This document shows, one piece after another, positions 1-54,998 of a stretch of 64,000 nucleotides of DNA (positions within the stretch are counted from its first letter, which is position 1; each line of letters begins with the position of its first letter). The stretch spans positions 2,609,001 through 2,673,000 of the forward strand of contig CM049414.1 in NCBI GenBank assembly GCA_026929865.2, in the 5' to 3' direction. Made by a program: the position numbers and the translations under genes. The DNA comes from Hyperoplus lanceolatus (lineage: Eukaryota; Chordata; Actinopteri; Uranoscopiformes; Ammodytidae). The notes under the pieces are model-generated. The model ran no database searches, had not been told where the DNA came from, and saw nothing but the letters and a program-made list of their open reading frames with translations.

Positions 1-994
1 TTTGAGTCAAGCTACATATGAAGTAATTTGGGGCGTAATTTCCTCTGGGGACATGGGGAAAAGAAGCACACAGACAGCCTGCCTCTGTGGACGCTGCCGG
101 TTGTGTGTGTAGGTGTGTTAACTCCCGTTGCTGCGATTACCTAGAATTGGCCAGAATTGGATCCCAAGCCAGAACTGGAACTGTGTAGGTGTGAACGCCA
201 TATGAGAGCGAGACAAATAGAAAGGGCTGTGGTGTGAGTACTTTAAATCAGTATAAAAATCAGTTATGTGAAAGAACAGATCTGGTAAACACTTTGCTTA
301 GCGTTTCAAGGACAGTTTTTCATGGTTTGCCAGCTCAGTATATAAGGCTGTAATGGACCCTTTTGGACCCTACAGAAATGTAGCAAGAATGTGGATATAT
401 TTACTATAATTGGAACAGGAATGGTTGGTCAACATCATCATTTCCAAACAGGTTTTATTGGAGAAGCTATTATTATTTGGTTATTTGGCATGAAAAGGCA
501 TGCTCTTCCATATTATATAAGGTCTTTTTGTATTAGTTTGTCCCCCCATTTTCTGCCAATTTGGAATGCCTTGTACCCTTTGTACTGCGGTCGTCATCAT
601 TGCTCTAACTCTAATTGGACTCTAAACCTGAGGAGGGTGCAGCCTGTATGTGCTACCTCTGATGGACGGAGCCCACGATGCAGGAAAATGCCAAAACAGT
701 TTGAAATTAAGTGATAAAAATAATTAATGTTTAAAGCTGTAATCTTGAACTCTTGAGTTACACTGTTGTTTCTTGTTTCTAAAAACGAAATTAGAAAAAT
801 TACAGATTTAATGAAATGCATACAGGTTTGAGTCTGAAGCTCCAAAGTCTTGAGAACAAGAACACACTGCTGAAGTGTGGCAAATATGAGGTCGCCTCTC
901 CGATAGTATTACTGGGCAAAGCAGCAAATACAAGAGCTTTCATCAGTGGGTCATATGCTCAATCACCATGGTTTTAACCATAGATATTATATAA
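1..994. other. Unassigned flanking DNA
   Basis: I see no gene, RNA or recognisable repeat here. Short open frames exist on both strands, but none resembles a known domain or has plausible exon structure. Confidence 0.5.
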
Positions 995-1508
995 CATGGA
1001 TGTAGCATCCGGGCTGACCTCAGTTATTCCAACTTCATCCAATCGTCCTGGCCTATGCGCGTCGCCATCTTGTCAGAGTTTTACTTCACCTCAATTCCTC
1101 TTACCGAAAAAGGGCATTGATGTGACGTTTGGGGGAGGGAGAGACACCCATCTTGCTGACGTGTACCTCAGAGGCGAAGTGAGGGCCAGCGGGCGGCTAG
1201 CTGTCACTCAAGAGGCCGTGCCCCCCATACATTTTAACCTCCAATAGAATAAAAACTAGCCTGCATCATAAAAATTCACCACCCTCAGTGTTGTCATGGA
1301 GATATGACGTAAACATACAGACTAGAATGTTTGTACCAGGCCGTAAATAGGTTTAATAATGCTGTGAAAATGGCCTATTTAACATGGGAGTCAATGAGAA
1401 ATTGCTCTGTTTTGATTCCACCTCTTAGTGGCCACTCGGTGAACTGCAATTTGTCACTTTCGCATTGGATGCTGGTAGAACTCGCTGTGGTTGGGGCTTG
1501 GTTTTAAC
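995..1508 (+). repeat. REP1 dispersed repeat, copy 1
   Basis: This roughly 500-bp block shares extended similarity with 25808-26266 (same strand) and, for its last 200 bases, with 52435-52642 (opposite strand). All three copies stop at the same terminal word, GTTGGGGCTTGG, which makes this a real family boundary. Copy 1 carries an extra segment near 1105-1135 that is absent from copy 2. The short open frame starting at 996 lies inside the repeat and is not conserved as a protein. I see no inverted ends and no transposase, so the class is unknown; a non-autonomous element is likely. Confidence 0.75.
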
Positions 1509-2211
1509 TCACTACGGATAACATCTTTAAATCACTCTCTCGCTTTAAAAGACAGCAAGGGAGTAGCATCTAATGTTTTTCAGTGAGATTCATGTAATGC
1601 TGGGTAACAAACTTGTTATTATTTGGCAAAAATTTATTTTTCTAATTAGAAATGGTGAACTTCTCACTCGCTTCCAGCGCAGTCCTGGAACGGTGGTAGA
1701 CAGCTGCGTTGGTATGAAGTAGGGCTGTGAACAATGTGTCAACTCAACCATTGATTCTCGACTCATGCTCAAGACAACTGCTGTGCAGAAAAACTCTGTG
1801 GTTTGACGGCTACAATGATAGTCAGGGATATCCTGCCTGTTAACGTTGTCTAGGGAAATGGCTTCCGCAATCTATGTATGTCTCGAGGCCGAAACATCAC
1901 ACAGCCATATCGGCAAACTGACTGCACGACTAAGGGGACTGTACAGTGGGCCGCCTCCCTCCCTGTTATTTTCAGTGGAGTAAGTTAAATTCACCTCCGA
2001 TGCATAGACAGCGTTTTAATAAAACCTCTAATTTCATTATCAAAAAGGCTTTGATGCAAATGAAGTTTGGCCTACAGGGCTCCAGACTGCAACCAAATGC
2101 ACGCATTTGCGACATTTTGGAGACAGTGCGATTACTTTTTAAAACTAGGGGCATGTTACAATTTGTATCTTGTTAGCTTGCTATTAAAGTATTTACACAT
2201 CTATTACTTAC
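1509..2211. other. Unassigned DNA downstream of the hAT-like gene
   Basis: On the minus strand this would be the intron or 3' continuation of the interrupted hAT-like gene whose last visible exon ends at 2212. I could not find the expected C-terminal dimerisation region here. Nothing else is recognisable. Confidence 0.4.
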
Positions 2212-2319
2212 TGAGGAGTTGTTGCTTTTCCTTTAGGACGACTTTAGCCATGTGGGATCTCCTCATCCATACAATCACAGAACGAATCCTTGCTGCCCAG
2301 TTGGAAACTGTATTGCAGT
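2212..2319 (-). pseudogene. hAT/ZBED-like transposase, exon piece beyond the ERV
   Basis: Read on the minus strand, this piece continues the transposase fragment at 10990-11433. If the provirus and one CAGT duplicate are removed, the reading frame passes from one piece to the other without a shift. The residues match the hAT/ZBED-type segment that follows the second catalytic aspartate (a W-x-x-R-I-R-S-V motif, then a basic K-V-V-L-K-E-K-Q-Q-L-L stretch). The piece ends at a consensus splice donor, GTAAGT, at 2211-2206. The further C-terminal exons, including the hAT dimerisation domain, were not found. The gene is therefore incomplete as well as interrupted. Confidence 0.75.
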
Positions 2320-3270
2320 TGTAGAGAAAATTAACCTTTATTGATGCCCCCCCCCCTTGCATATACATATTATATATAATACACATATTACACATATTAG
2401 CTTTAAATCAGCAGCAGGCCCCAGATTGAGTGAGAATTGTTGAGAGAGATGAAATCACCAGATAGTTTTATTTCGGCTGTCTGTACATAGAAAGAAGTAG
2501 CACTCTCAGGGAACTCTGACTGACCCTTTAGCACATGCATTTAAGAGAAGTGACCCTGGTCTTAAACTCGGGCTGACCCTTAACACTTGCAAACTTAGAG
2601 CAAGAAAGGGAACAACTGAAGAAAACCCCCTACATGACATAAACGTACAAACTGCCAACTGACAGTTGAACATGTGCCTTGGGCCCCAGATTAATTAGTG
2701 AGACAAGGCCCCTTCCCCTTTCACCCAACAACATGCACACACTACTGATTACCAAGACTGTCAACTGACAGTCTAACATAAGACATAGAATGAATCATGA
2801 TAAGCCCCCCACCCAACTTAACATGCACACTACTGATTGCAAGATTGTCAACTGACAGTCTAACATATGAGCCATATAATGAATTATGATAAGCCCCCTT
2901 TCTTTACACCGACAACATGCACACACTACTGACAGAAGAGGAACCAGAAGATCCGAGCCGGACATGAGCCAGCCCGGTGGCCATATTCAGTGCTTCAACC
3001 AGACCGCGTGCAGTAGAATACGTTCCGTCTGCATCATTTGACTTTGACCAATAGGACTTCACAAGAAGAATCCTACTTATGCTTCCGCACTCTGTTTAGC
3101 CTTTTCTTTGTGAGAGCTCAGCCAGTTGTTCACTGTCTAGAGTCACGTGCACGTTTAACTGTACGAGACATCTACTCTGCTTTTGGTAATATTACTTTTA
3201 TAACTAAACCTTTTTGACTGGAACCTCCGTCCTTCATGCTATTTTGTCCTATTTTTGACAATTCTTAACA
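2320..3270 (+). repeat. 5' LTR of the endogenous retrovirus
   Basis: 951 bp with TG...CA ends. It matches 10024-10989 along its whole length with scattered substitutions and small indels (for example around 2528-2550), so the insertion is not brand new. The U3 part holds a tandem repeat block. The pyrimidine-rich right part reads into the primer site with no gap. I could not assign the exact U3/R/U5 borders or a convincing TATA box. Confidence 0.93.
2729..2933 (+). promoter_or_regulatory. U3 tandem repeats with inverted-repeat cores
   Basis: About two and a half copies of an 85-90-bp unit start with ACATGCACAC...CTACTGA and end with ATGATAAGCCCCC. Each full unit contains the near-perfect inverted repeat GACTGTCAACTGACAGTC (with GATTGTCA in the second copy). 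A shorter version, AACTGACAGTT, lies just upstream. The 3' LTR keeps the same arrangement (about 10430-10635). Tandem repeats in U3 are the usual position of retroviral enhancers, so I infer an enhancer array. No specific factor is claimed. Confidence 0.6.
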
Positions 3271-3289
3271 TGGTAGCAGAGGATGGTTT
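3271..3289 (+). other. Primer binding site, initiator-Met tRNA
   Basis: The 19 bases immediately after the 5' LTR (TGGTAGCAGAGGATGGTTT) are the complement of the CCA-tailed 3' end of vertebrate initiator methionine tRNA as I know it, with no mismatch seen. The site starts directly at the LTR end. It would prime minus-strand DNA synthesis. Confidence 0.85.
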
Positions 3290-3437
3290 AAAAAGATCAT
3301 AACTTGGAGAAAAGTTGCTAAACTACTTTCTCCTCACTGTCCACAGGACCCGGCGTGATTGGGCCGAGAGTTTCAGTAGGCGTTGCGTCTTCAGACTGAC
3401 CTCGGGAACCTGATCACAGAGAGCGCTCTCATCAATA

Positions 3438-3447
3438 AAGGGTAAGC
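3438..3447 (+). promoter_or_regulatory. Candidate proviral splice donor
   Basis: AAAGG/GTAAGC sits about 170 bases after the LTR and fits the vertebrate donor consensus. The position is suitable for the major donor that makes spliced env message in simple retroviruses. No acceptor was chosen, so this is an inference from position and consensus only. Confidence 0.4.
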
Positions 3448-3941
3448 AGGACCTTTTTAACTAAACTCTGCATTTCTTAGTCTAGTCAATATCCAAATCA
3501 AGTGATCAGTGTACCGAGTGTGAGTATTGAACACGTAGTTAATTCAGTAACTGTAATACAATCATACAGCAGAGTTGGTGGCTTGATAAAATAAAATCTG
3601 CCATAGTGTACACATGAATGAACGGGTTTAACAGAATTGATAGCTTAGAATAAGTGATTTGAGACCGCATACCTCACGAGGCTCTTATGGGTTGTATCTG
3701 ATCGCCGAAGCATGCCATTGGTGTGAAGTAAGCGATTGTCAAACGACCTGTGGGGTCATACGAGAAGGCTTGTCCGCTCAATGATCTGAATACAAGCTTG
3801 AGATTAAACCACTAACCTTGCATATTTGTATTTTCTTTTTGTTTATATTACTAGAGACACCCTGTATCAATTATTGTTTTGAATTTTATGAGAAACACCC
3901 TGTGGTGTGAGAATCCAGTTACTGTGTGCGTGTGTGCTTCC

Positions 3942-4593
3942 ACAGCCTATGCTGTAGTCGCGTGTGGTTGCTTTAGCAAACCAAGAGTGTGTGTGTGTCT
4001 ACCACAACCTTGTTGTGGTTGAGTGTGTGGGTGCTTTGACTTCCCCAGAGTGCCTGTGTGTGCGAGCTCTGCAGCCTATGCTGTGTTTGAGTAGTTAATC
4101 AAAGTCTTGAGTTCACTATAACAGCCTAAGGGTGCAGATTTAGTTATTTTTCGACCTGTGTCGAGTTTTTGTTTGTTTACTTTCCGGCCTGTGCCGTTTA
4201 AGAAGTAGATTTTGTTACTTTACGACCTGTGTCGTGTTGAATTATTTGTTTTGATTCACTACCTGTGTAGTGTGTGTGTGATTTTCACGACCTGTGTCGT
4301 GTTTGAGAGTTTAGTTTTGAATCCTGTTGCTTCTCGGCCTGTGCCTTATCGTAACCTATCGACCTGTGTCGTGTTGGATTCAGTTACTTTTGAATCCTGT
4401 TGCTTCTCGGCCCGTGCCTTATCGTGACCTATCGACCTGTGTCGAGTATTGGATTCAGTTACTTTTCGGCCTACGCCTTATCGTAACCTATCAACCTGTG
4501 TTGAGATTTTGTTTTATTTACTTTTCGGCTTGTGCCGTGATAAAGTGTTATTGATTCAGCCTGTGCTGTGGTTTTTGGAGCGGCCTGCGTCGC
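3942..4593 (+). repeat. Array of CTGT-loop mini-hairpins in the proviral leader
   Basis: About sixteen short inverted repeats lie in the leader, spaced 20-60 bases apart. Most have the form C-N-N-C, CTGT, G-N'-N'-G. Clear examples (first base of the left stem) are 3942 ACAGC/GCTGT, 4001 ACCACAAC/GTTGTGGT, 4151 TCGAC/GTCGA, 4185 CGGC/GCCG, 4222 ACGAC/GTCGT, 4257 CACTAC/GTAGTG, 4286 CACGAC/GTCGTG, 4360 CGAC/GTCG, 4432 TCGAC/GTCGA, 4491 TCAAC/GTTGA, 4526 CGGC/GCCG, 4556 TCAGC/GCTGT (CAGC/GCTG paired), and 4580 GCGGC/GTCGC with one wobble. Weaker copies are at 4071, 4336, 4409 and 4467. The loop is mostly CTGT (also CTAT, CTT, CTAC, TTGT). Stem bases change on both sides together. Confidence 0.85.
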
Positions 4594-4778
4594 GGTTGAG
4601 TTCGGGTCATATTCAAGAGTATTTCCTATCTAAGGCACTGTTGCCTGGTTGCTTGCTGTATGTGTTAAAGTAGGGCCTTGCTGTGCCATCCAGCTCCAAT
4701 CAGGAAATATTCCAAAGAATAGTGAACGACTCTGGTTGTCTTAAGAATTTGAATTGTCTTAAGAGTTGATTTGTTTTT

Positions 4779-4890
4779 GAAGTGTTTTGAATTATTTTTT
4801 AGTTGTGTTTTGAATTGTTTTTTAGTTGTGTTTTGAATTGTTTTTTCTGTAGTGTTTTGAAGTGTTTTTTAAAAAAAAAAAAAAAAAAAA
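4779..4890 (+). repeat. Short tandem T-rich repeat and A20 in the leader
   Basis: Four units of about 23 bases share GTGTTTTGAA(T/G)TGTTTTTT (4779-4800, 4801-4823, 4824-4846, 4847-4870). They are followed directly by twenty A residues (4871-4890) and a short AAAT-type run. This makes the leader upstream of the gag-like start low in complexity. Confidence 0.8.
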
Positions 4891-4974
4891 GGAGACAGTA
4901 CTGCTAATAGATAACTAAATAAATAAATAAATAAATATAAAATAAAAGTAAATAACGTTTTATAAATTTATGGT

Positions 4975-5226
4975 ATGGCTGAACATTGGACTATTGCAAT
5001 AGAGTTTGAAGAACAAGCTGCCACACCACGAGTGCACGATTCACCAGTGCACGAGGACCAACTTCCCGTTTCCCACCCCCATAACTCAGCGAGTGCACAT
5101 GCTGACCACGCGGACACTTTTAACATCCCCCTTGTAACGTGGTTGCAGTGGAAAAAGGTTGTTGTGGATTGGGTGCGTTTGAACCATTGGTTCTCCAGCG
5201 CAGTTCCTGTTAGGCAACACTGCTAG
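4975..5226 (+). pseudogene. Short gag-like open frame (N-terminal remnant)
   Basis: This is an 83-codon frame beginning with ATG, the first sizeable frame after the leader, in the place where gag should start. It shows no zinc knuckle, late-domain motif or other gag hallmark. It ends just before the SINE that begins at 5232, so the SINE insertion or a linked deletion may have removed the rest. The assignment rests on position alone. A chance open frame is a fair alternative. Confidence 0.3.
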
Positions 5227-5231
5227 TAATT

Positions 5232-5535
5232 GGGCGGCAGTGGCAAAGTGGGTAGGAAGTTCGCCTCTGGTGTGCAGGGTCGGAGGTTCGATCCCCCGTC
5301 TCCCCGCCACATGTCCCAAGTGTCCCTGGGCAAGACACTGAACCCCAAATTGCTCCCGATAGTAAGCTTGGATTAGCTTAGCACCCTAGTGCTAAGCCTA
5401 CCTGCGTGGTAGCTGCTGCTATCGGTGTATGAATGTGTGTGTGACTGGGTGAATGTGTACAAAAAACAATGTAAAGCGCTTTGAGTCTGTGATAAGCGAG
5501 TATAGCTATACAGAATCCATTACCATTGCCATTTA
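5232..5535 (+). mobile_element. tRNA-derived SINE (SINE-A), inserted in the provirus
   Basis: The head has an A box (TGGCAAAGTGGG, 5241-5252) and a B box (GGTTCGATCCC, 5285-5295) at tRNA spacing, closed by matching GGC and GCC ends. The body contains CTGGGCAAGACACTGAACCC and GGTAGCTGCTGCTATC, both also present in the minus-strand copy at 54741-54977. The tail reads TAAAGCGCTTTGAGT and ends in CCATT-type repeats. RNA polymerase III promoter function is inferred from the boxes. The element sits between the gag-like frame and the integrase region. Confidence 0.85.
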
Positions 5536-7145
5536 GTTATCAATTTAGGGATCCTTATTATTGTATCTACCACCTATGAGAGACATAGATAAATAGGGAA
5601 TTGAAATATTGTCCCCAACGCGTGCCCGCGCGGTTTCCTCACTGAATTGACTCGCTGTGTATATCTAGCCTTGGGAGGAAGCTTTTGAACTACTTGGTTT
5701 TGAAATCTTGGACCTGACATTATAGATTGATAAATAGATTGACACTTTATTTATCCCCAGGGGAAATTCAGATAACCAGTAGCACAAAGACAGTACAGGC
5801 TTGTGGCGAGCTCAGATGGCAGAGTTGTAGCCCCAGCAAAATTGCTAAGCCCTGCTCCTGCCAGAGAGCACACAGACCCACTCATGAAGGACAGAGAACC
5901 ACACTCTCGAACATTACAGCTCAATGGTGGCATCCAGAGATGGAAAGCATAGTTCGCTATTTACAACGAGTGCCATGTTTGTGGTGCACACAATCCCAGA
6001 AAACCTTTGCGACACCTATGGGGTCCTACCCCGTACCATCCAGCTCCCTTCCGTTGTTAGTATGAACTATACTGACATGGGTTCTGAAAATGTAGTACAG
6101 GGCAAGAGATACTGTTGGTAATGGTAGATAGGTTTCAAAATGGGTGGAGCGATCAGCAAAACATGAGTATGCAAAAACAGTAGTCAAGTGGCTAAAAACA
6201 GAACTGTTGCTAGATACGGAGTACCAGCTAGAATCAGGTCCGACAACGGAACACATTTCAGTAACAAGATGTTGCAGGAGGTGGAACAGGGGTTGGGAAT
6301 CGTGCACAGTTTTGGGTCAGTGTAGTCCATTTACCATTTACCATTTAGTTATCAATTTAGGGATCCTTATTATTGTATCTACCACCTATGAGAGACATAG
6401 ATAAATAGGGAATTGAAATATTGTCCCCAGCGCGTGCCCGCGCGGTTTCCTCACTGTGAATTGACCCTCTGTGTATATCTAGCCTTTGGAGGAAGCTTTT
6501 GAACTACTTGTAGTTTTGAAATCTTGGACCTGACATTATAGATTGATAAATAGATTGACACTTTATTTATCCCCAGGGGAAATTCAGATAACCAGTAGCA
6601 CAAAAAGACAGTACAGGCTTGTGGCGAGCTCCAGATGGCAGAGTTGTAGCCCCAGCAAAATTGCTAAGCCTGCTCCTGCAGAGGCACACAGACCCACTCA
6701 TGAAGGACAGAGAGAACCACACTCTCGAACATTACAGCTCAATGGTGGCATCCAGAGATGGAAAGCATAGTTAAGCTATTTTGCGCAGAGTGCCATGTTT
6801 GTGGTGCACACAATCCCAGAAAACCTTTTACGACACCTATGGGGTCCTACCCGGTACCATCAGCTCCCTTCCAGACATTAGTATAGACTATACTGACATG
6901 GGTTCTGAAAATGTAGTACAGGGCAAGAGATACTTATTGGTAATGGTAGATAGGTTTCAAAATGGGTGGAGGCGATCAGCAAAACATTGAGTATGCAAAA
7001 ACAGTAGTCAAGTGGCTAAAAACAGAACTGTTGCCTAGATACGGAGTACCGCTAGAATCAGGTCCGACAACGGACACATTTCAGTAAGATGTTGCAGGAG
7101 GTGGAACAGGGGTTGGGAATCGTGCCACAGTTTTGGGTCAGTGTA
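5514..7145 (+). repeat. Twofold tandem duplication of the integrase region
   Basis: The block at 5514-6324 is repeated at 6325-7145 at an offset of about 812-820 bases. Each unit begins in the CCATTTA-type tail of the SINE and ends with TTTGGGTCAGTGTA in integrase. The two units differ mainly by many one- or two-base insertions and deletions, for example near 5810, 5860, 5950 and 6145 of the first unit. Because the SINE tail is inside the duplicated unit, the duplication happened after the SINE insertion. Confidence 0.9.
5930..6324 (+). pseudogene. Retroviral integrase fragment, first copy
   Basis: Pieces of the integrase zinc-binding region (an H-x-C-G-A-H-N-P-like motif, spread over two frames) and of the catalytic core are readable. 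The first catalytic aspartate lies in a D-Y-T-D-M context near 6065-6080. The second lies in an S-D-N-G-T-H-F-type motif near 6240-6262, out of frame with it. The copy stops at the duplication junction before the region of the third catalytic residue. Several frameshifts separate the pieces, so no functional product is expected. Confidence 0.75.
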
Positions 7146-7480
7146 CCACCCCAGTCCCAGGACTGGTGGAACGGGCAAATCAGACATTGAAAGCCAAAAT
7201 AGCCAAAGGTTTTGCTCAGGAAGCAAAATGACGTGGGTTGAAGCCCTCCCACTGGCCCTTATGGCCATGAGAAGCTCAAAGGGCAGCCACGCACCTCTCC
7301 CTGTGAGCTTCTCACAGGGTGTGCCTGGTCCACCCAGGACGAGAGGTCATATGCCGCGAAGGTCCTCGAGGAAAAACCAGAACAGACAGAGACACAGCTA
7401 GACAAGTGGGGACTGGGTCAGAGTTAAGGTCCACAAGCGAAAGTGGACTGACCCCAGGTGGTCCGGACTAAATGCAGTAA
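6750..7480 (+). pseudogene. Retroviral integrase, second and longer copy
   Basis: This copy repeats the zinc-binding and core pieces seen at 5930-6324. It then continues past 7145 into the part with the third catalytic residue (V-E-R-A-N-Q-T-L context, about 7165-7190) and the C-terminal basic region to about 7480. All three DDE positions can be located, but in different frames with single-base indels between them. Integrase normally inserts viral DNA into the host genome and is the last product of pol. Its upstream partners RT and RNase H are absent here. Confidence 0.8.
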
Positions 7481-7754
7481 AGGAGGTTACTTCACACTCG
7501 GTCCAAGTCAAGGGCAAATCAGGAGCGCCCTGGCATCACATAGCACACTGTACATCAGCACCTCCCCTACCACTTACTTGGAGCTAAGACAAGATCTAGC
7601 TAACCTGAGTAATAGCGAACACGAGGAGAAACGTGACTGAGAGAGAGATGAGGAGAACAGTGAATAGATTGTTGGGGACTACTCAACAGGAGAACCCGCT
7701 TCGGTACAGGAGTTGGTCCCTTAAGGACATGGGTTTTTAGGAGGAAACCATAGC

Positions 7755-9712
7755 ATGGGGTGGGTTTACAATTGCAATGTGCGTGTCCTACTAATGTGGG
7801 GTTCGAATCTTGGATACTCCTTAGTAAAACTAAAAACCATTTCAACACTGCCACCTCCCACCCGACTAATAACACAGCTGTATGAAAGTCAGACATGACC
7901 AAATTGACCCGTAGCAAGAGAGCTGCAGACACCAAAAGTAAGAATGCCAACGTAAGACTGTGTCCAGCAAAATTGTAGTCGAATTTGTTGAAGGTGTAAC
8001 AGCCACAGCCCTTATTGATTTCTGTACCGTGGTCCAGTGCCATGGTAGGGAGCAGGGCTGGACCTGGTCTGAAAAGTATGTCTGTACTGCCTTTGGGGCC
8101 CATGACAATCCCCTGCGATACAAACAACGCCCTTCCTTTTCCTCTAACTATGCCCCTGAAATGTATTGTGCAAATTGGAAACACTGTATTGCTAACTCAG
8201 GTGCTAAGGACTGGGGATATGGTTCAAGTCATGACATGAAAGGAAGATTGTCCATTTTTAAGGGAAACCAACCAGTCCCACTTTGTGCTAAGAATAACTG
8301 TAACACCCTATTTCTAACCCTAACTGACCCCAAGCTATCTGACTCTGGCATTTACGTACTAGGTTCATGGGAAACAGGGACAGATCCGGTGGGGCAATTT
8401 AAGATCCAGGTAAAGAAATCTCCTAGCATACATGCTGCCAGTTGGGGATCAATACCACAACATCCTTAAACTCCCCTGATCCAGACTTAGGCATCACGCA
8501 TGTGATGGCCCAGGATTTTTTCCAAATTGACACCTCAGACTATCCTTCAAATGGGCACAAGGCTATGGGATAGAATGTCTGGCTAGATTGGATTGTCCAG
8601 TCTGCCAAAGACCAGCAGATGGAAGGCTGTGTGTGCCTGTGCTAGTGCACGACCACAATTGACCACTAACCCTGCACCTCTGTTTCCAGACACCGGCCGA
8701 GTAGGTTATGCATGCATGATTGGACTATTTGGGAGGCTACTCCATCGAACTGCAGCACCTTAGCAGCCATATTTCCTACTGCCTAACAAACAAAGACTGG
8801 AGTGTTCTCCCCACAACGGGGGGAGCCCAAAAGATATCGCTGTTTCAATTTTACCGCTTCTGCCACTTTAAATGTAGGGAAGGTCCCTCAGGACTGGTGT
8901 AATTCTACAAGCAGTGGTTCTGTCATTGGACCTTGGACCCTGTGGTCTGTGCTAGTACTGCGGGGGTCTGCGCCTGTTATCCAGGATTGTTGCTGATAAG
9001 ACCTATGGGGTGTGCGCCATGGTTAGACTTGTTGCACCCCTGAAGCTAATTGGAAATAAGGCAGTTAGAGACTCCACACTAGCCCAGACTTTGACCAAGC
9101 GCAGGAGACGACATATCTTGACCAGGCTCACTGATTCCGAAGGTGTGGTGACCATAACCCCCTCTACTTCGGCGGCACAGCAGAATCCCAAGAGGGGTCC
9201 CCAATAGGTACAAATTAGCTGACCAGGTAGCTGCTGGTTTGGAAAGCATTCTCCTTTGGATAACCCCAAACAAGAATGTGGATAGGATCAATTATGTTTG
9301 GTACACCCTGCTCAGACTGACTAACAGCACTAGAGACGGTATGGAGGCCGCTGCTGAACAAGTGGCTCAACTTCTCTCATGACCCAGTCCAGAACTTCGT
9401 ATGGCTTTGGATATGCTGCTAGCAGAAAAAGGGGGTGTCTGTGCAATGTTTAGGGACATGTGTTGCACAGTTATCCCCAATAATACTGCACCCGACGGCT
9501 CTATGACTAAATCTATTACTGAACTGCGTGCACTCTCTAAGAGAGCGCATGAGCACTCTGGAATCGACAATCCATTCAGCGATTGGTTGGACTCGGCCTT
9601 TGGCAAGTGGAAGTCCCTAATTATGTCTATCCTCATGTCCCTAGGGGTGTTTGTGGGGATCCTGGTCACTTGTGGTTGCTGCATTCCTTTCCTTAGAGAC
9701 TATGGTCGCTAG
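7755..9712 (+). pseudogene. env: Envelope gene, frameshifted (class I retrovirus type)
   Basis: The probable start at 7755 is followed by a moderately hydrophobic leader. The surface subunit is readable mainly at 7960-8469, which has several cysteines and a D-S-G-I-Y-V motif like that of Ig V-type folds. A polybasic cleavage-like run (K-R-R-R-R) lies near 9095-9112. The transmembrane subunit contains the C-X6-CC motif at 9440-9466, typical of gamma-type class I envelopes. A hydrophobic membrane span follows (about 9618-9695) with a short tail, ending at the stop 9710-9712. At least four frame changes and in-frame stops (for example near 7897, 8468, 8530-8660 and 9375) break it. The normal role is receptor binding and membrane fusion; this copy cannot encode a full protein. 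Confidence 0.85.
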
Positions 9713-9993
9713 GCTAATCACCACTACACTTACCAAGAGAAAACACCTCCTATGATGCAGGGACATACCCCACATTAGCTCAGAACTTGGAGGTAGACTG
9801 TTTTCCTCTTAACCTTGAACCCTTTCCCCAGGTAAAACTTGCCCCTTATGAACAACCCAGTTGAATCTTGTCCTCTAAGGACCACCTTTCTTTTCCTGCC
9901 CATTAAGCTCTGTCCTCTTTTAAAAAAAAAAAAAAAGCGCTTACCAATATTTAGCATTAGCTTGCCTATGCAGACTAAAGATTAAGGTTTGGT
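9713..9993 (+). other. Proviral 3' untranslated segment
   Basis: This lies between the env stop and the polypurine tract. It holds a run of about fifteen A (9921-9935) and no further reading frame of note. No accessory gene is visible. Confidence 0.6.
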
Positions 9994-10023
9994 CCACACC
10001 TATCAGGTGTGGAAAGGGGGATT
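9994..10023 (+). other. Hairpin plus polypurine tract before the 3' LTR
   Basis: A perfect 8-bp stem (CCACACCT 9994-10001, AGGTGTGG 10005-10012) with a 3-base loop is followed directly by AAAGGGGG (10013-10020), three bases, and then the 3' LTR. The purine run is the expected plus-strand primer site. The adjoining hairpin is seen in the sequence; any role is inference. Confidence 0.8.
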
Positions 10024-10989
10024 TGTAGAGAAAATTAACCTTTATTGATGCCCCCCCCTTGCATATACATATTATATATAATACACATATTACACATATT
10101 AGCTTTAAATCAGCAGCAGGCCCCAGATTGAGTGAGAATTGTTGAGAGAGATGAAATCACCAGATAGTTTTATTTCGGCTGTCTGTACATAGAAGAAGAA
10201 GTAACACTCTCAGGGAACTCTGACTGACCCTTTGCTTTACCTGCACATTTAGAGAAGTGACCCTGGTCTTAAACTCAGGCTGACCCTTAACACTTGCAAA
10301 CTTATAGCAAGAAAGGGAACAACTGAAGAAAACCCCCTACATGACATAAACCGTACAAACTGCCAACTGACAGTTGAACATGTACCTTGAGCCCCAGATT
10401 AATTAGTGAGACAAGGCCCTTTCACCCAACAACATGCACACTACTGATTGCAAGACTGTCAACTGACAGTCTAACATAAGACATAGAATGAATCATGATA
10501 AGCCCCCACCCAACAACATGCACACACTACTGATTGCAAGATTGTCAACTGACAGTCTAACATGAGCCATATAATGAATTATGATAAGCCCCCTTTCTCC
10601 CCCTACACCCGACAACATTACACACACTACTGATATGAAGAGGAACCAGAAGATCCCGGAGAGCCGGACATGAGCCAGCTTGAATGGCCATATTCAGTGC
10701 TCCAACCAGACCGCGTACAGTAGAATACGTTCCGTCTGCATCATTTGACTTTGACCAATAGGACTTCACAAGAAGAATCCTACTTATGCTTCCGCGCACT
10801 CTGTTTAAGCGCCTTTTCTTGTGAGAGCTCAACCAGGTTGAACTTTCACTGTCTAGGTCCGTGCACGTTTAACTGTAGGACATCTACTCTGCTTTTAGTG
10901 AAATAAATACCACTTTTTATAACTAAACCTTTTTGACTGGAACCTCCGTCCTTCATGCTATTTTGTCCTATTTTTGACAATTCTTAACA
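10024..10989 (+). repeat. 3' LTR of the endogenous retrovirus
   Basis: 966 bp, starts TGTAGAG and ends TTAACA, and is followed by the second CAGT target copy. It is colinear with the 5' LTR, with substitutions and small indels (for example about 10190-10200 and 10230-10250). It carries the same U3 repeat block. Confidence 0.93.
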
Positions 10990-11433
10990 CAGTTGTACAG
11001 CTTCTGAGCACCAAGGTCAAGTGTGTGCGTAAAACATGGAAACTTACTGATGTTAAGCTTTTTGACAGCTACATTCATGTTTGCTGCGTTATCCACAGTT
11101 GCTGCCACCACCTTCTCTTTCACTCCAAACTCCTCCAGGAGCCCCTCAATGTCCTCCGCAACAGCTATCCCTGTTTGAGCTTGGTACATTGCTTTGGTTT
11201 TAAGGACTTTTTCTTTACTCTGACCTTCCCTGACGTAGTGCATTGTTACGGCGAGGTAGTGGTCTTGACTGAAACTAGTCCAACCATCTGCTGTGATGGC
11301 TGCATTTGTGATATGTTTCAGGTCTGCAATCAGATTGCTCTTTTCAACCCCATACCAAGCAGGAATCAGGTGATTTGTTAAACTGTCTCTGTTTGGGGCT
11401 TTGTATTTTGAGTTGAGAATCTTTATCATCTTC
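10990..11433 (-). pseudogene. hAT/ZBED-like transposase, catalytic exon
   Basis: On the minus strand this encodes about 145 residues of a hAT-family DDE core. The first catalytic aspartate sits in a T-A-D-G-W-T-S motif and the second in a T-V-D-N-A-A-N-M motif, followed by C-F-T-H-T-L-D-L. The exon opens after a good acceptor (TTTTCTGTAG, ending at 11434). It joins in frame to the exon at 11558-11783 and, across the provirus, to 2212-2319. hAT transposases cut and paste DNA elements, and many vertebrate ZBED genes are domesticated relatives. This could be either an autonomous hAT with introns or a ZBED-like gene. The provirus interrupts it, so it is dead in this allele. Confidence 0.85.
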
Positions 11434-11557
11434 CTACAGAAAATATATGGTAGGACTATGAATAAAACAGAACTATACCGACATAAAAACTTTGAAATTT
11501 GTTATTTTCAGTTGAAAAGAAAAGCTGGACATACTGTAATACAGCATATTAACCTAC

Positions 11558-11783
11558 CGAAATTCAAGAGGACTCTACTTTGGCAAACGGGTGCAAACCC
11601 TTTACCACAAACTTAGTCACTGCGCTCGGTGACATTTGTTTATCCTCGCCTCGGTCATTTTATTCCTCCCTGCCTCTGTGAACGGAGTAGCTAGAACGAT
11701 AGCACGATAGCTACTTGCTGCAGACTCTGAGCCAGTGTAAGAGCCTGCCTCTGAGCCAGCCAGACTCTGGCCATCATCATCTT
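11558..11783 (-). pseudogene. hAT/ZBED-like transposase, linker exon
   Basis: The exon begins after an acceptor (TCAATTTTAG) and ends at a donor (GTAGGT at 11557-11552). It encodes an acidic, serine-rich linker. Then comes the segment ending K-F-V-V-K-G-L-H-P-F-A, which precedes the catalytic domain in hAT/ZBED proteins. A one-base insertion near 11620 and a stop near the exon end break the frame. The splice phase agrees with the next exon at 11433. Confidence 0.7.
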
Positions 11784-11900
11784 CTAAAATTGATGGACAA
11801 TGATAATGGAGATTATTCATATAGTATACATTTACACAATGAAATGGCACTCACATTAAGTAAGCAGACAGGGCCTATCCTGTCTGGAGTTTAAAGTTAC

Positions 11901-12150
11901 CTTCGGTATTAATAACAGACGGCGTCCCGATAGCTCTGCTGCTGCTTGACTCACTTGCGTTGCTAATTAGTAGTGTATCACCACGCGACATTCCTGCAAA
12001 TGAATTGCATGCTGTGTAGCCAAATGTTTCTGCATATTGGTAGTTCCCCCCTTTGATAAATGGAAACTTTACAATTGTTGCAAGTGGCTGTATTTCCGTC
12101 TTTTAGAGTGAAATCCAACCAACTTTAGAGCGCTTCTGCCTTGGCGCCAT
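11901..12150 (-). pseudogene. hAT/ZBED-like transposase, BED-finger exon
   Basis: A minus-strand start at 12150 leads into a BED-type zinc finger. The C-x-x-C half (A-T-C-N-N-C) and the H-x5-H half (N-M-Q-K-H-L-A-T-Q-H) are both present, but one-base shifts separate them. A stop falls early in the first frame. The exon ends at a donor (GTAACT at 11900-11895). BED fingers give DNA binding to hAT transposases and ZBED proteins. Confidence 0.7.
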
Positions 12151-12248
12151 GTTTGCTGCGTTCTGAACCAAAACAAAGCAGCGCATGTGGGACGTCATGA
12201 CTCGCTGATGATTCCGAGGAATTGATTCACTCGGCACTGGGTCTGAAC

Positions 12249-13642
12249 TAGGGCTGCACGATATGGACAAATCTTCATATCCCGATATGTTTAGGCTGAC
12301 TGGCGATATAAGATATATATATCGATATATAGCTATTGAGGAAAAACATATATATTTTCAATAGATATTTTCATATAAAATAGCTTAAGCATTAATATAA
12401 AAATTTCAAGAGGTGTGTCCTGTATTTTCTGGAGACACTGGTCTCATGATGTGGAAGCTCATATTTATTAATTTGTTAAATATAAATGAATTAGGCCTAC
12501 ACATTGTACATCAAAAGTCTGATACAGGAGCCATGACATTTAGTTTAATATCACATATGCATTGATAAACAGTCTGCATGAAGGTATTGAAAAACATCAG
12601 TTTTGTGTAAACTACACAGTATTTTATTGACATCAGAAAGTCTACACATCTTCCACTACAGGCTAAAAACACATTCTCTTCCAAATGCACCTTGGCTAAG
12701 AAGAATATGATGGTCTAAAAACATTTGAATAAAATAGCTTGATGCCAATAGGCTACACGTGTCTTGCTGTTCTGGGTCTGTTCCGTCATGGTTGAATTAA
12801 CTAATTGGAAGTCGCTTTGGATAAAAGTGTAAGCTTTTTCAATGTAAAGTATTGTGTTGACAGTCCTTAGAAACACTGCCGTTCAAAGTCAGAACGCAGA
12901 TTGTCCAACCTAAAACTAAGTTACCAGCGCTACTTCATACTGCTGTTGTAAATGCTAGAAGAGATTGGTAGTGCTTTGCAACGTTTGCAACTTGTTTCTG
13001 GCATTCTCTACAAACGCCCCGCTTCTGCTGCTCGTCTGTTCTTTTAAATCCGAGCCGATTCCAAGTAAACGAACCGTTGTTATATTCCCGTTTGGTTTAA
13101 TTCTACCGGCGCTGTGTCACTTTGCCTAGCTTCCCTCCATGCTTGTTATGTTGTGAACGGAGCGGAGAAAATCAGAGAGGGGAGGAGGAGGGCTCACTCC
13201 TCGGGAAGTCTCACACACACATACTCTTCATGCGATGCGAGGAAAACACGGACGCTCGAGGCAGAAACTGATTATTTTAGCGCAGAAAGACGTGTATCGA
13301 TATAAACAAAATTGGCCGTGTTTCCCAGATGACTTATGCGCTGATAAAGAGGTGGGTGATCGATTCGCCTGGCATCGATTTATTCAGTTTCAGCATCACC
13401 GCGGTGGACAGCTCCCACTAAAGAGCTTCTTTCGCTTCATTTTACGCGTTCTCCAAAGAAGGCACTTAAGATGGCATCTGGGAAACACCCGTATCTTAGC
13501 GCTCCTTCTTTGGCGAACCCTTCTTTCGACACTTCTTTGGTCCCAAAGATCGATCGAATCTGGGAAACGCGGCCATTGTCTAATCTTGTATCCCGTTAGA
13601 AATGATATCGATATATCTCACAAACTCGATATATCCTGCAGC
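12249..13642. mobile_element. hAT-like non-autonomous element with CGATAT-rich ends
   Basis: The left end reads TAGGGCTGCACGATATGG and the right end, inverted, reads TTGCTGCAGGATATATCG. The ends are thus degenerate inverted repeats rich in CGATAT. No transposase is visible between them. A short SINE tail (GTCGCTTTGGATAAAAGTGT, about 12811-12830) and a smaller inverted-repeat element (13314-13574) lie inside. Target duplications could not be confirmed, so superfamily and exact right end are tentative. Confidence 0.5.
13314..13574. mobile_element. Small MITE nested in the 12249-13642 element
   Basis: It has 17-bp inverted ends, GGCCGTGTTTCCCAGAT (13314-13330) and ATCTGGGAAACGCGGCC (13558-13574), with one mismatch. 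ATT stands on both outer sides as a possible 3-bp target duplication. It is 261 bp long and has no coding capacity. Confidence 0.7.
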
Positions 13643-13689
13643 AAACTCTTGACTGTCGTTTGTGCACCAAACAGCAGCTAAGATACTTC

Positions 13690-14260
13690 TGCCTTCTTGG
13701 AGACCCTGAATGGAGTCCTGCATGGGGGTCCGGGAAGGGAATTCATAGTTATGCTGGCAGACTCCAACGTGCACATTGGCAGAGATGGAGACTCCTGGAG
13801 AGGCGTGATTGGGATGGCCTCCTTGATCTAAACGTGGTTGTTTGTTATTAGACTCCTTAGCTAGTCATGGATTGTCTATGATGGACACCATGTTAGAAAT
13901 AAAGACGCTCATAAGTTTTCGTGGTCCCAGAGCATTCTAGACCAAAGGTTGCTGATCGATTTCGCGATCATATGGTCTGATCTTAGGCCACATATTTATG
14001 ACACTTTATTGAAGAGAGGGGTTGAGCTGTCAACCTATAACCATTTAGTGGTGAGTTTGGTTCAGGGGGTGGGGGCAGACTCTGGACCGACATGGTAAGC
14101 CCAAACAGGTAGTTCGGGTGAACTGGGAACGTCTGGAAGAGGCCCCTGTCCAGGAAATCCTCAACTCACACCTCCAATGGAGCTTTTCTGCCATCCCTGT
14201 GGAGGTTGGTGAACCCGAGTGGGCACTGTTCTAAGTTAATAGAAACTGCCAGAGAAATTG
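13690..14260 (+). pseudogene. LINE endonuclease-domain fragment
   Basis: Interrupted frames encode residues typical of the apurinic-type endonuclease of non-LTR elements. In order these are a segment like G-R-E-F-I-V-M-L-A-D-S-N-V-H (about 13733-13776), a D-G-D-S-W-R-G-V-I-G motif, and V-N-W-E-R-L followed by a conserved linker (about 14117-14235). The first resembles the metal-binding G-D-x-N block with a changed first half. It looks most like teleost RTE-type or related elements, but the clade is uncertain. There is no RT here. Stops near 13830 and 13850 and frame changes show decay. Confidence 0.6.
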
Positions 14261-54293: not shown

Positions 54294-54998
54294 AGGTCAC
54301 ATATGATGCTCATTTTCAGGTTTAAAATTTTAATTTGGGTTTCTACAACAAAGTGTTTTCATGGTGGAGTGTCCAAAAAGCCTTTATATTTATCTCAGGG
54401 CCATTGCTCAATCTCCTCTTTTCAGCCTCTATCTGAAATGCTCAGTTTTTAAGCCTGTCTCTTTAAGCCCCGCCTTTTCAAAAATCCCATTCTGCTCTGA
54501 TTGGCCCTGAATCTAACTGCAGGTTTGGATCTAACTGCGAGTTGGATTCAGTGGCATTTAGGGGCTTATCACAGGTGGAGGAAGTTCAAATAAGGTTGGT
54601 AATGAGGGGGCGTGGCTTCTCCCTTTATCATGTCATAAGGGGAGAGAAATCTGACTTTTCAGAAAGGTGGAGGTAGTTAAAAATTGTTCTTGTCACATCT
54701 GAGACCCATGTTAAAGTTGAAAAACCATGAAGTGCATTTTACATTACATGTCATTTAGCAGACACTTTTATCCAAAGCGACTTACCTCTGGAGCACACAT
54801 TCATACACTGATAGCAGCAGCTACCACACAGGGTGCTGGCTAACTACCAGGAGACATTTAGGGTTCAGTGTCTTGCTCAAGGACAATTGGGCATGTTGTG
54901 GGGAGACTGGGGATCGAACCACTGACCCCATAGTTGCAGGTCCACCATCCTATCCACTTTGCCACAGCCCCCCCAAAGAATTGCATTATAGGTGACCT
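54294..54998. mobile_element. TTAA-flanked MITE with a nested SINE
   Basis: The inverted ends AGGTCACATATGATGC (left) and GCATTATAGGTGACCT (right) abut TTAA (54290-54293) and TTAG (54999-55002). A truncated relative ends exactly at TTAA at 31679-31682, which supports a TTAA target. The SINE at 54741-54977 interrupts it close to the right end. Confidence 0.75.
54741..54977 (-). mobile_element. SINE-A, minus strand, nested in a MITE
   Basis: On the minus strand it has a tRNA-like head (GCTGTGGCAAAGTGGATAGG), a B box (GGTTCGATCCCC, about 54910-54921), the body CTTGAGCAAGACACTGAACCC and GGTAGCTGCTGCTATCAGTG. The tail is GTCGCTTTGGATAAAAGTGT. Head and body match the SINE at 5232-5535 but the tail differs. 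Confidence 0.8.

What the first reader, a model, noticed from the sequence alone, without database searches (positions are those of the whole stretch)
3942..4593. Array of covarying CTGT-loop mini-hairpins in a retroviral leader
The leader between primer site and gag-like start contains about sixteen short inverted repeats with nearly the same loop but different stems: CGAC/GTCG, CGGC/GCCG, CAGC/GCTG, CAAC/GTTG, CTAC/GTAG and longer forms up to 8 bp. Because the left and right stem bases change together, ordinary decay of a tandem repeat does not explain the pattern. Either the RNA hairpin is selected (packaging, dimerisation or translation in a 1.7-kb leader), or a template-switching process rewrites one arm from the other. 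I know of no retroviral leader described with such a serial array. The proposed function is inference; the covariation is visible directly.
Basis: partly seen in the sequence, partly recalled or inferred. Interest (0 to 1): 0.88.

Follow-up and report, generated by a model that had tools for sequence, protein, structure and literature searches.

The report
Repeated RNA hairpins in fish retrovirus leader
A degraded retrovirus in a fish genome carries, in front of its genes, a row of small RNA hairpins whose stems differ from one to the next yet still pair; this points to selection on the RNA, probably to help package or translate the viral genome.

Summary
Confirmed and sharpened. The leader of a class I fish provirus (window 3271-4974) holds about 18 short hairpins of the form C-[CTGT-like loop]-G, with mostly 3-6 bp stems, from 3895 to 4593; two other hairpins lie within or just after. 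There are 15 loop-4/stem>=4 hairpins in 3942-4593, against 1.65 in shuffles (0 of 1000). Among 18 units the two variable inner pairs are paired 18 of 18, in four pair types each. The covariation score is 0.571 against 0.211 shuffled (0 of 500). Among six copies in the same genome, stem columns vary less (12 of 175) than spacers (76 of 514) or loops (13 of 70). AUG is the most depleted trinucleotide of the leader (10 against 32), on the sense strand only. A conserved splice-donor-like site precedes the array, so it should be confined to unspliced RNA. Two sister lineages carry only two such hairpins; one more distant leader has none. The array is thus a lineage-specific expansion with stems diversified under pairing. 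Zebrafish ZFERV is described with a 517-bp region of nine direct repeats, so repeats in such a virus are not new; I found no description of a covarying hairpin array. Function (Gag docking, or translation) is inferred.

The parts
2319..3270 (+). 5' LTR (its partner is at about 10023-10989, 91.7% identical)
   Evidence: self-comparison
3271..3286 (+). primer-binding site, matching the 3' end of initiator tRNA-Met (tRNA identity recalled)
   Evidence: sequence
3442..3447 (+). splice-donor-like site (AAAGG|GTAAGC) upstream of the array; present in 5 of 6 copies of this lineage (C14a lacks the matching leader part), 5 of 5 lineage-B copies and C6b
3895..4593 (+). array of 18 CTGT-type mini-hairpins (loops start at 3900, 3947, 4054, 4076, 4156, 4189, 4227, 4263, 4292, 4339, 4364, 4412, 4437, 4471, 4496, 4530, 4561, 4585)
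4001..4019 (+). longest stem in the array region, 8 bp (loop CTT here, CTTT in copy C14a); not one of the 18
4288..4529 (+). part of the array that is visibly a tandem duplication (periods 73 and 59)
4633..4646 (+). hairpin AGGCA-CTGT-TGCCT after the array (closing pair A-T, not C-G)
4599..4700 (+). block conserved downstream of the array in lineages A, B and C6b, with a palindrome-like core at 4670-4681 (perfect GTAAGGCCTTAC in B and C6b); possible dimerisation or core packaging element (inference)
4975..5226 (+). ORF of about 100 codons with a hydrophobic C-terminal segment, cut by a SINE-like insertion here; longer in sister copies; not gag
9383..9709 (+). fragment of a gamma-type envelope (TLV_coat, below the curated cut-off)
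10023..10989 (+). 3' LTR

Best explanation
The array is a run of RNA stem-loops kept by selection on base pairing in the unspliced leader RNA of one lineage of class I fish retroviruses. It grew by tandem duplication of one hairpin-bearing unit (sister lineages keep two), after which the stems diverged by paired changes while the closing C-G and the CUGU-type loop stayed. Shown: hairpin excess, pairing, covariation between units, lower variation of stems among copies, AUG depletion of the leader. Inferred: each hairpin presents an unpaired G in a pyrimidine context (C-CUGU) to the nucleocapsid zinc knuckle of Gag, so the array acts as a multivalent docking platform that enlarges the packaging region. 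Different stems keep each hairpin folding locally and make deletion by reverse transcriptase between identical repeats less likely. Short stems are weak enough to let scanning ribosomes through.
For: Excess over shuffles; arm permutation 0 of 10000; 18 units: 87.8% of cells paired against 70.9% shuffled, score 0.571 against 0.211, slid controls at most 44.4% paired; 29 units from three lineages: 90.3% against 74.0%, score 0.578 against 0.234. Stem columns 12 of 175 variable, spacer 76 of 514, loop 13 of 70; as few in 8 of 749 circular shifts of the mask. Donor-like site upstream of the array, so spliced RNA would lack it. A gag ORF piece of sister copy L134 has one CCHC motif, the only one a motif scan found in six fetched pieces. 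MoMuLV NC, also single-knuckle, binds UCUG and inserts the G; RSV and HIV-1 NC bind G in hairpin tetraloops (PMC7599994, passages). Four of five lineage-B copies show no gag-like frame of 60 codons or more in their first 3.5 kb, yet are 94.9-99.8% alike over the matching stretches and keep the leader hairpins, as expected if this part carries signals needed in cis.
Against: No binding or packaging data. The loop is CUGU, not UCUG, and loop columns are the most variable class among copies (13 of 70), which is unexpected for a strict recognition site. Among copies, 10 of 14 changed pairs still pair against 8.6 expected for the same substitution types, so no excess there. In folding of the whole leader 10 of 18 hairpins tested are in the minimum-energy structure and mean pairing probability is 0.57 (0.53 in local context), so they need not all form. 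Orthologous columns show almost no double changes. CpG decay can make some apparent compensations. The array is short or absent in relatives, so it is not essential to the clade.
Confidence: 0.42

Rival explanations
1. [quoted passage not shown]
For: AUG is the most depleted of 64 trinucleotides in the leader (10 against 32.0, z -4.9), while its reverse complement CAT is not (13 against 16.6); 20 control stretches of the window give z from -2.3 to +1.0; depletion repeats in C10 and C14b. PCE is described as a redundant 5' UTR stem-loop structure acting in cap-dependent translation (PMC2657110, passages).
Against: AUG depletion concerns the whole leader, not the hairpins. It is not seen in C6b (17 against 19.6), which has only two CTGT hairpins; this could also be read as a link between array and scanning. 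PCEs were not compared here by sequence or structure.
Confidence: 0.25
2. Non-functional: a palindromic unit was duplicated in tandem, and quasi-palindrome correction (template switching inside the hairpin by reverse transcriptase) kept arms matched while they drifted.
For: The array contains tandem duplications; unit number differs between copies; loops change freely among copies; changed pairs among copies are not kept more often than expected.
Against: At least six stem classes, with little variation of stems among copies compared with spacers; wobble states are present; correction would not explain the fixed closing C-G, the near-constant loop between units, or the AUG depletion.
Confidence: 0.17
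3. The hairpins bind a host RNA-binding protein for nuclear export or stability of unspliced RNA (constitutive-transport-like).
For: Confined to unspliced RNA if the donor-like site is used; serial similar loops suit multivalent protein sites (general knowledge).
Against: No specific evidence; a search of Rfam over 2300-5500 gave one weak minus-strand hit (E 0.55) far below its cut-off.
Confidence: 0.1
4. DNA-level array: palindromic protein-binding sites in the leader, like the insulator in the leader of the fly gypsy retrovirus (site array recalled; only search listings seen).
For: Serial sites in the same part of a retroviral element.
Against: A DNA-binding protein would keep the arms fixed; here arms change together and the central word stays, in one orientation (no paired CTGT of stem >=4 on the minus strand of the leader).
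Confidence: 0.03

Closest known systems
ZFERV (zebrafish endogenous retrovirus, epsilon-like, related to SSSV) and its 517-bp repeat region with nine direct repeats
   Same: Class I fish provirus with a block of serial repeats of about 57 bp on average (517/9); here 59 and 73 bp units. That the region lies between the 5' LTR and gag is recalled; the passages seen list LTRs, repeat region and ORFs without stating the order.
   Different: Described as direct repeats; no hairpins or covariation mentioned in the passages seen. No ZFERV sequence was available here, so homology is untested.
MoMuLV packaging signal (tandem stem-loops and UCUG sites bound by a single-knuckle NC)
   Same: Leader RNA, several short stem-loops, pyrimidine-rich G-containing sites, one CCHC knuckle in Gag (PMC7599994 passages).
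   Different: MoMuLV UCUG is a linker exposed on dimerisation, not a loop; it has a few stem-loops rather than about 18 similar ones.
RSV and HIV-1 Psi hairpins
   Same: NC binds G in hairpin tetraloops.
   Different: Few and different hairpins; other loop sequences.
Retroviral post-transcriptional control element (PCE)
   Same: Redundant stem-loops in the 5' leader (PMC2657110, passages).
   Different: No similarity tested.
gypsy insulator array in the leader of the fly gypsy retrovirus
   Same: Serial protein-binding sites in the untranslated leader (recalled).
   Different: DNA sites with a fixed sequence; here stems vary and co-vary.

Membership tests
Class I (gamma/epsilon-type) endogenous retrovirus | LTR pair, tRNA primer site, Gag with CCHC knuckle, gamma-type Env | tested here: met
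   LTRs, primer site, CCHC in a gag ORF piece of sister copy L134, TLV_coat at E 2.6e-4 but 20.3 bits against a cut-off of 22.5
Class I (gamma/epsilon-type) endogenous retrovirus | Placement by RT phylogeny | not tested
   RT relatives listed in the same genome only; no tree built, no reference RT compared
ZFERV/SSSV group | Serial repeats in the provirus | tested here: met
   tandem units at 4288-4529 and hairpin array
ZFERV/SSSV group | Sequence homology to ZFERV or SSSV | not testable with these tools
   no zebrafish or SSSV sequence found to compare; one scan of viral contigs with a PR-RT piece found no relative; original papers not held
Retroviral packaging signal (Psi) | Lies in unspliced RNA between splice donor and gag | tested here: met
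   GTAAGC site at 3442; gag start in sister copies downstream; splicing itself not shown
Retroviral packaging signal (Psi) | Conserved secondary structure | tested here: met
   covariation between units; lower stem variation among copies; not shown between orthologous columns
Retroviral packaging signal (Psi) | Binds Gag/NC and directs packaging | not testable with these tools
   needs bench work
MoMuLV-type Psi | UCUG NC sites as the repeated motif | tested here: not met
   TCTG occurs once in 3895-4593, CTGT 18 times
Post-transcriptional control element (PCE) | Redundant stem-loops that bind RNA helicase A and raise translation | not testable with these tools
   only AUG depletion of the leader was measured
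Known Rfam RNA family | Match above gathering score | tested here: not met
   1 hit at E <= 1 in 2300-5500: E 0.55, 22 bits against 40.4, minus strand

The most novel reading that the evidence does not exclude
A modular cis-acting RNA element of a kind not described for retroviral leaders: an expandable array of some 18 mini-hairpins that multiplies by tandem duplication and then diversifies its stems by compensatory change while holding a C-CUGU-G head, giving the virus an adjustable, multivalent binding platform for its own Gag or a host factor.
Probability: 0.45. Interest if true: 0.76.

Novelty: new variant of a known kind. Interest (0 to 1): 0.6.

Why it matters
Well-studied retroviral packaging signals are a handful of unlike stem-loops, hard to dissect because each is unique. 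An array in which nature has varied stem, loop and number within one RNA would allow direct tests of how many sites Gag needs, what the loop must be, and why stems differ. It could also give a structural reading to repeats in fish retroviruses such as ZFERV, described as direct repeats in the passages I could read.

Tried and rejected
PR-RT search of viral contigs and gag search of the protein database (7993 candidates scored): no relatives. A genome-wide count of arrays by pattern did not complete, so the number of arrays in the genome is unknown; the DNA searches that did answer score only the best candidates. Consensus folding of the six copies gave 1 of 192 pairs with a double change: the copies are too alike to test covariation by column, so I used units within the array. 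A second hairpin class in sister leaders (8-bp stem, loop with AAGCCTAYGG) looked covarying by eye, but permutation of 5 distinct arm pairs gave 466 of 5000 as high: not significant. L203 (RT 60%), L201 and L204 (RT 96%) gave no recognisable leader and are not counted as lacking the array. The first script for the second class failed. Rejected: simple decay of a tandem repeat (arms match); strict DNA-binding sites (arms vary).

Rows dropped: 19 sites passed 'C-loop-G, loop within one mismatch of CTGT' in 3861-4660. For A4/A5 I left out two with loop GTGT (3930, 3962), which pair poorly, and added one with loop CTAC (4471), which pairs at three positions; this favours the pairing count, but the permutation used all 19. 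The 11 added rows of A5 were picked by hand; an earlier set had two rows out of register and was not used. The site at 3748 (1 bp stem) lies outside that interval. In some searches stems were defined on the window copy; repeating without the window copy gave 10 of 174 against 74 of 498. One search used a wrong loop position for the 4471 hairpin; one search left that hairpin out.

Full report
What is there. The window lies in a genome of 807 Mb (G000:C20:2609001-2673000). Positions 2319-10989 are a degraded provirus with LTRs 91.7% identical, a primer site at 3271-3286 fitting tRNA-Met (recalled), a leader of 1.7 kb to an ORF at 4975, fragments of integrase (weak), a duplicated 0.8-kb internal unit and a gamma-type Env fragment (TLV_coat, E 2.6e-4, below cut-off). 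The C9 copy is identical to this one in the parts compared, flanks included, so the two are one duplication and count once.

The hairpins. In 3942-4593 there are 15 hairpins with loop 4 and stem >=4, against 1.65 +- 1.32 in 1000 dinucleotide shuffles, none reaching 15. In a scan of 652-base stretches the densest starts at 3901 (15, against a mean of 3.8). Twelve have a CTGT-like loop. The word CCTGTG has stems >=4 bp at 10 of 12 places in 3880-4620 and 2 of 34 elsewhere in the window. The array begins at 3895. Tandem duplication is part of the story (periods 73 and 59 in 4288-4529).

Covariation. Using all 19 sites with a C-G closing pair and loop within one mismatch of CTGT, stem positions 2-4 pair (Watson-Crick) in 46 of 57 cells against 26.8 +- 3.0 when right arms are permuted. 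With each distinct arm pair counted once the figure is 23 of 33 against 12.0 +- 2.3 (0 of 10000 both times). The pair counter on 18 units gives 87.8% paired against 70.9%, score 0.571 against 0.211, and at most 44.4% for slid partners. The number of pairs with any double change (4 against 2.6) is reached in 47 of 500 shuffles and is not by itself remarkable. The pair next to the closing one is GC 8, AU 7, GU 2, CG 1, and the next GC 11, AU 5, UA 1, UG 1, so 18 of 18 are paired at both; the outermost counted pair is unpaired in 8 of 18. Adding 11 units from other copies and lineages keeps this. These units are related by duplication, so the shuffles overstate significance; the slid controls share that relatedness and stay low. 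Some compensations (CGNC to CANC with GNCG to GNTG) could be paired CpG decay; CGAC to CGGC and CGAC to CTAC cannot.

Copies. Five further loci of the same lineage were aligned with the window copy (A1): C10, C14a, C6, C11 and C14b. Unit number varies: C11 lacks several units and C14b most of the middle. Counting columns with letters in at least three copies, variable columns are 12 of 175 in stems, 76 of 514 in spacers and 13 of 70 in loops (Fisher stem against spacer 0.006). Without the window copy the stem and spacer figures are 10 of 174 and 74 of 498. Circular shifts of the stem mask reach as few in 8 of 749. Of 14 changed pairs 10 still pair, against 8.6 expected for the same substitution types: no excess at that level. 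Consensus folding gives almost no double changes.

Relatives. Lineage B (five loci) and C6b carry two CTGT or CTGC hairpins each; the first one of C6b has lost its fourth pair. They are joined to a second, longer hairpin type whose covariation is not significant. B copies C3, C23, C2a and C15 show no gag-like frame in the first 3.5 kb and are 94.9-99.8% alike over matching stretches; B copy C2b has the small ORF and gag. The leader of a family at 60% RT identity (L202) has no CTGT hairpin with stem >=4; it is the only such leader seen. The long array is thus a feature of one lineage here, grown from a short ancestral form (inference).

Leader context. A GTAAGC donor-like site at 3442 precedes the array; the same site is found in C10, C6, C11 and C14b, in 5 of 5 B copies and in C6b; C14a has no match to window 3271-3890 at all and lacks it. 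Downstream lies a block conserved in all three lineages with a palindrome GTAAGGCCTTAC in B and C6b, slightly changed in A. AUG is the rarest trinucleotide relative to shuffles in the leader of the window copy (10 against 32.0), C10 (12 against 30.1) and C14b (12 against 26.1), but not C6b (17 against 19.6). CAT is not depleted, and 20 control stretches give z -2.3 to 1.0 (leaders of 4 of 12 copies could be cut out by the anchors). The leader of lineage A is therefore AUG-poor on the sense strand, as expected if ribosomes scan it.

Folding. Eighteen hairpins tested singly (16 of the 18 array units counted above, plus those with loops at 4009 and 4638) have -2.9 to -9.6 kcal/mol; mean pairing probability is 0.53 in local and 0.57 in full-leader context, and 10 of 18 closing pairs are in the minimum-energy fold. 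The 776-nt piece folds better than 20 shuffles (z -3.8). The hairpins are plausible but individually weak, and not all need form at once.

Function. Packaging through NC is my first choice because of position, multiplicity, the CCHC knuckle in related Gag (L134) and the known taste of NC for unpaired G in such contexts (PMC7599994, passages). Translation is a serious rival because of the AUG depletion and the known redundant stem-loop PCE (PMC2657110, passages). Neither was tested. Loop variability among copies (13 of 70) argues against a strict loop sequence.

Literature. Nine answered searches of the library listed no paper whose title or abstract start describes a covarying hairpin array in a retroviral leader. 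Most subscription journals are not held, and the two papers most likely to matter (ZFERV 2004, SSSV 2006) are not held. PMC3382231 (passages) describes the ZFERV repeat region. PMC4977317 (passages) places ZFERV with epsilon-like viruses and SSSV.

Noticed in passing
window 4975-5226; L133, L134, L160: An ORF of about 100 codons with a hydrophobic C-terminal segment lies between leader and gag. It is conserved between lineages (91 codons compared, dN/dS 0.56), so probably a real small membrane protein gene; it is placed like orf-c of walleye dermal sarcoma virus (recalled).
   Followed up: partly
L131 (C10 copy); window 5516-7145: A 0.8-kb integrase-region unit is repeated head to tail: twice in the window, and four full units plus one cut by the end of the piece in the C10 copy, 97.6-97.8% identical to the window's second unit.
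   Followed up: partly
L157, L158, L159, L161 against L160: Four lineage-B copies show no gag-like frame in their first 3.5 kb, and all four share parts of their leader with the L202 family, suggesting recombinant non-autonomous elements mobilised by others.
   Followed up: partly
G000:C9:2643000-2660000 and window 1-14000: Identical provirus parts and flanks on two contigs: a recent segmental duplication or an assembly artefact.
   Followed up: partly
G000:C15:28590487 (L172, L204): RT protein is 96% identical to copy C14b but a 621-base gag stretch only 74% identical in DNA, which suggests recombination.
   Followed up: no
L004 (C14a copy) against window 3271-3890: C14a has the array and LTR but nothing matching the first 0.6 kb of the leader, including the donor-like site: another recombinant or a replacement.
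   Followed up: no
window 10423-10593: An 86-bp unit is tandemly repeated in the 3' LTR.
   Followed up: no
window 5232-5439: A tRNA-like SINE-type insertion interrupts the small ORF; a related stretch lies at 54794-54973, opposite strand.
   Followed up: no
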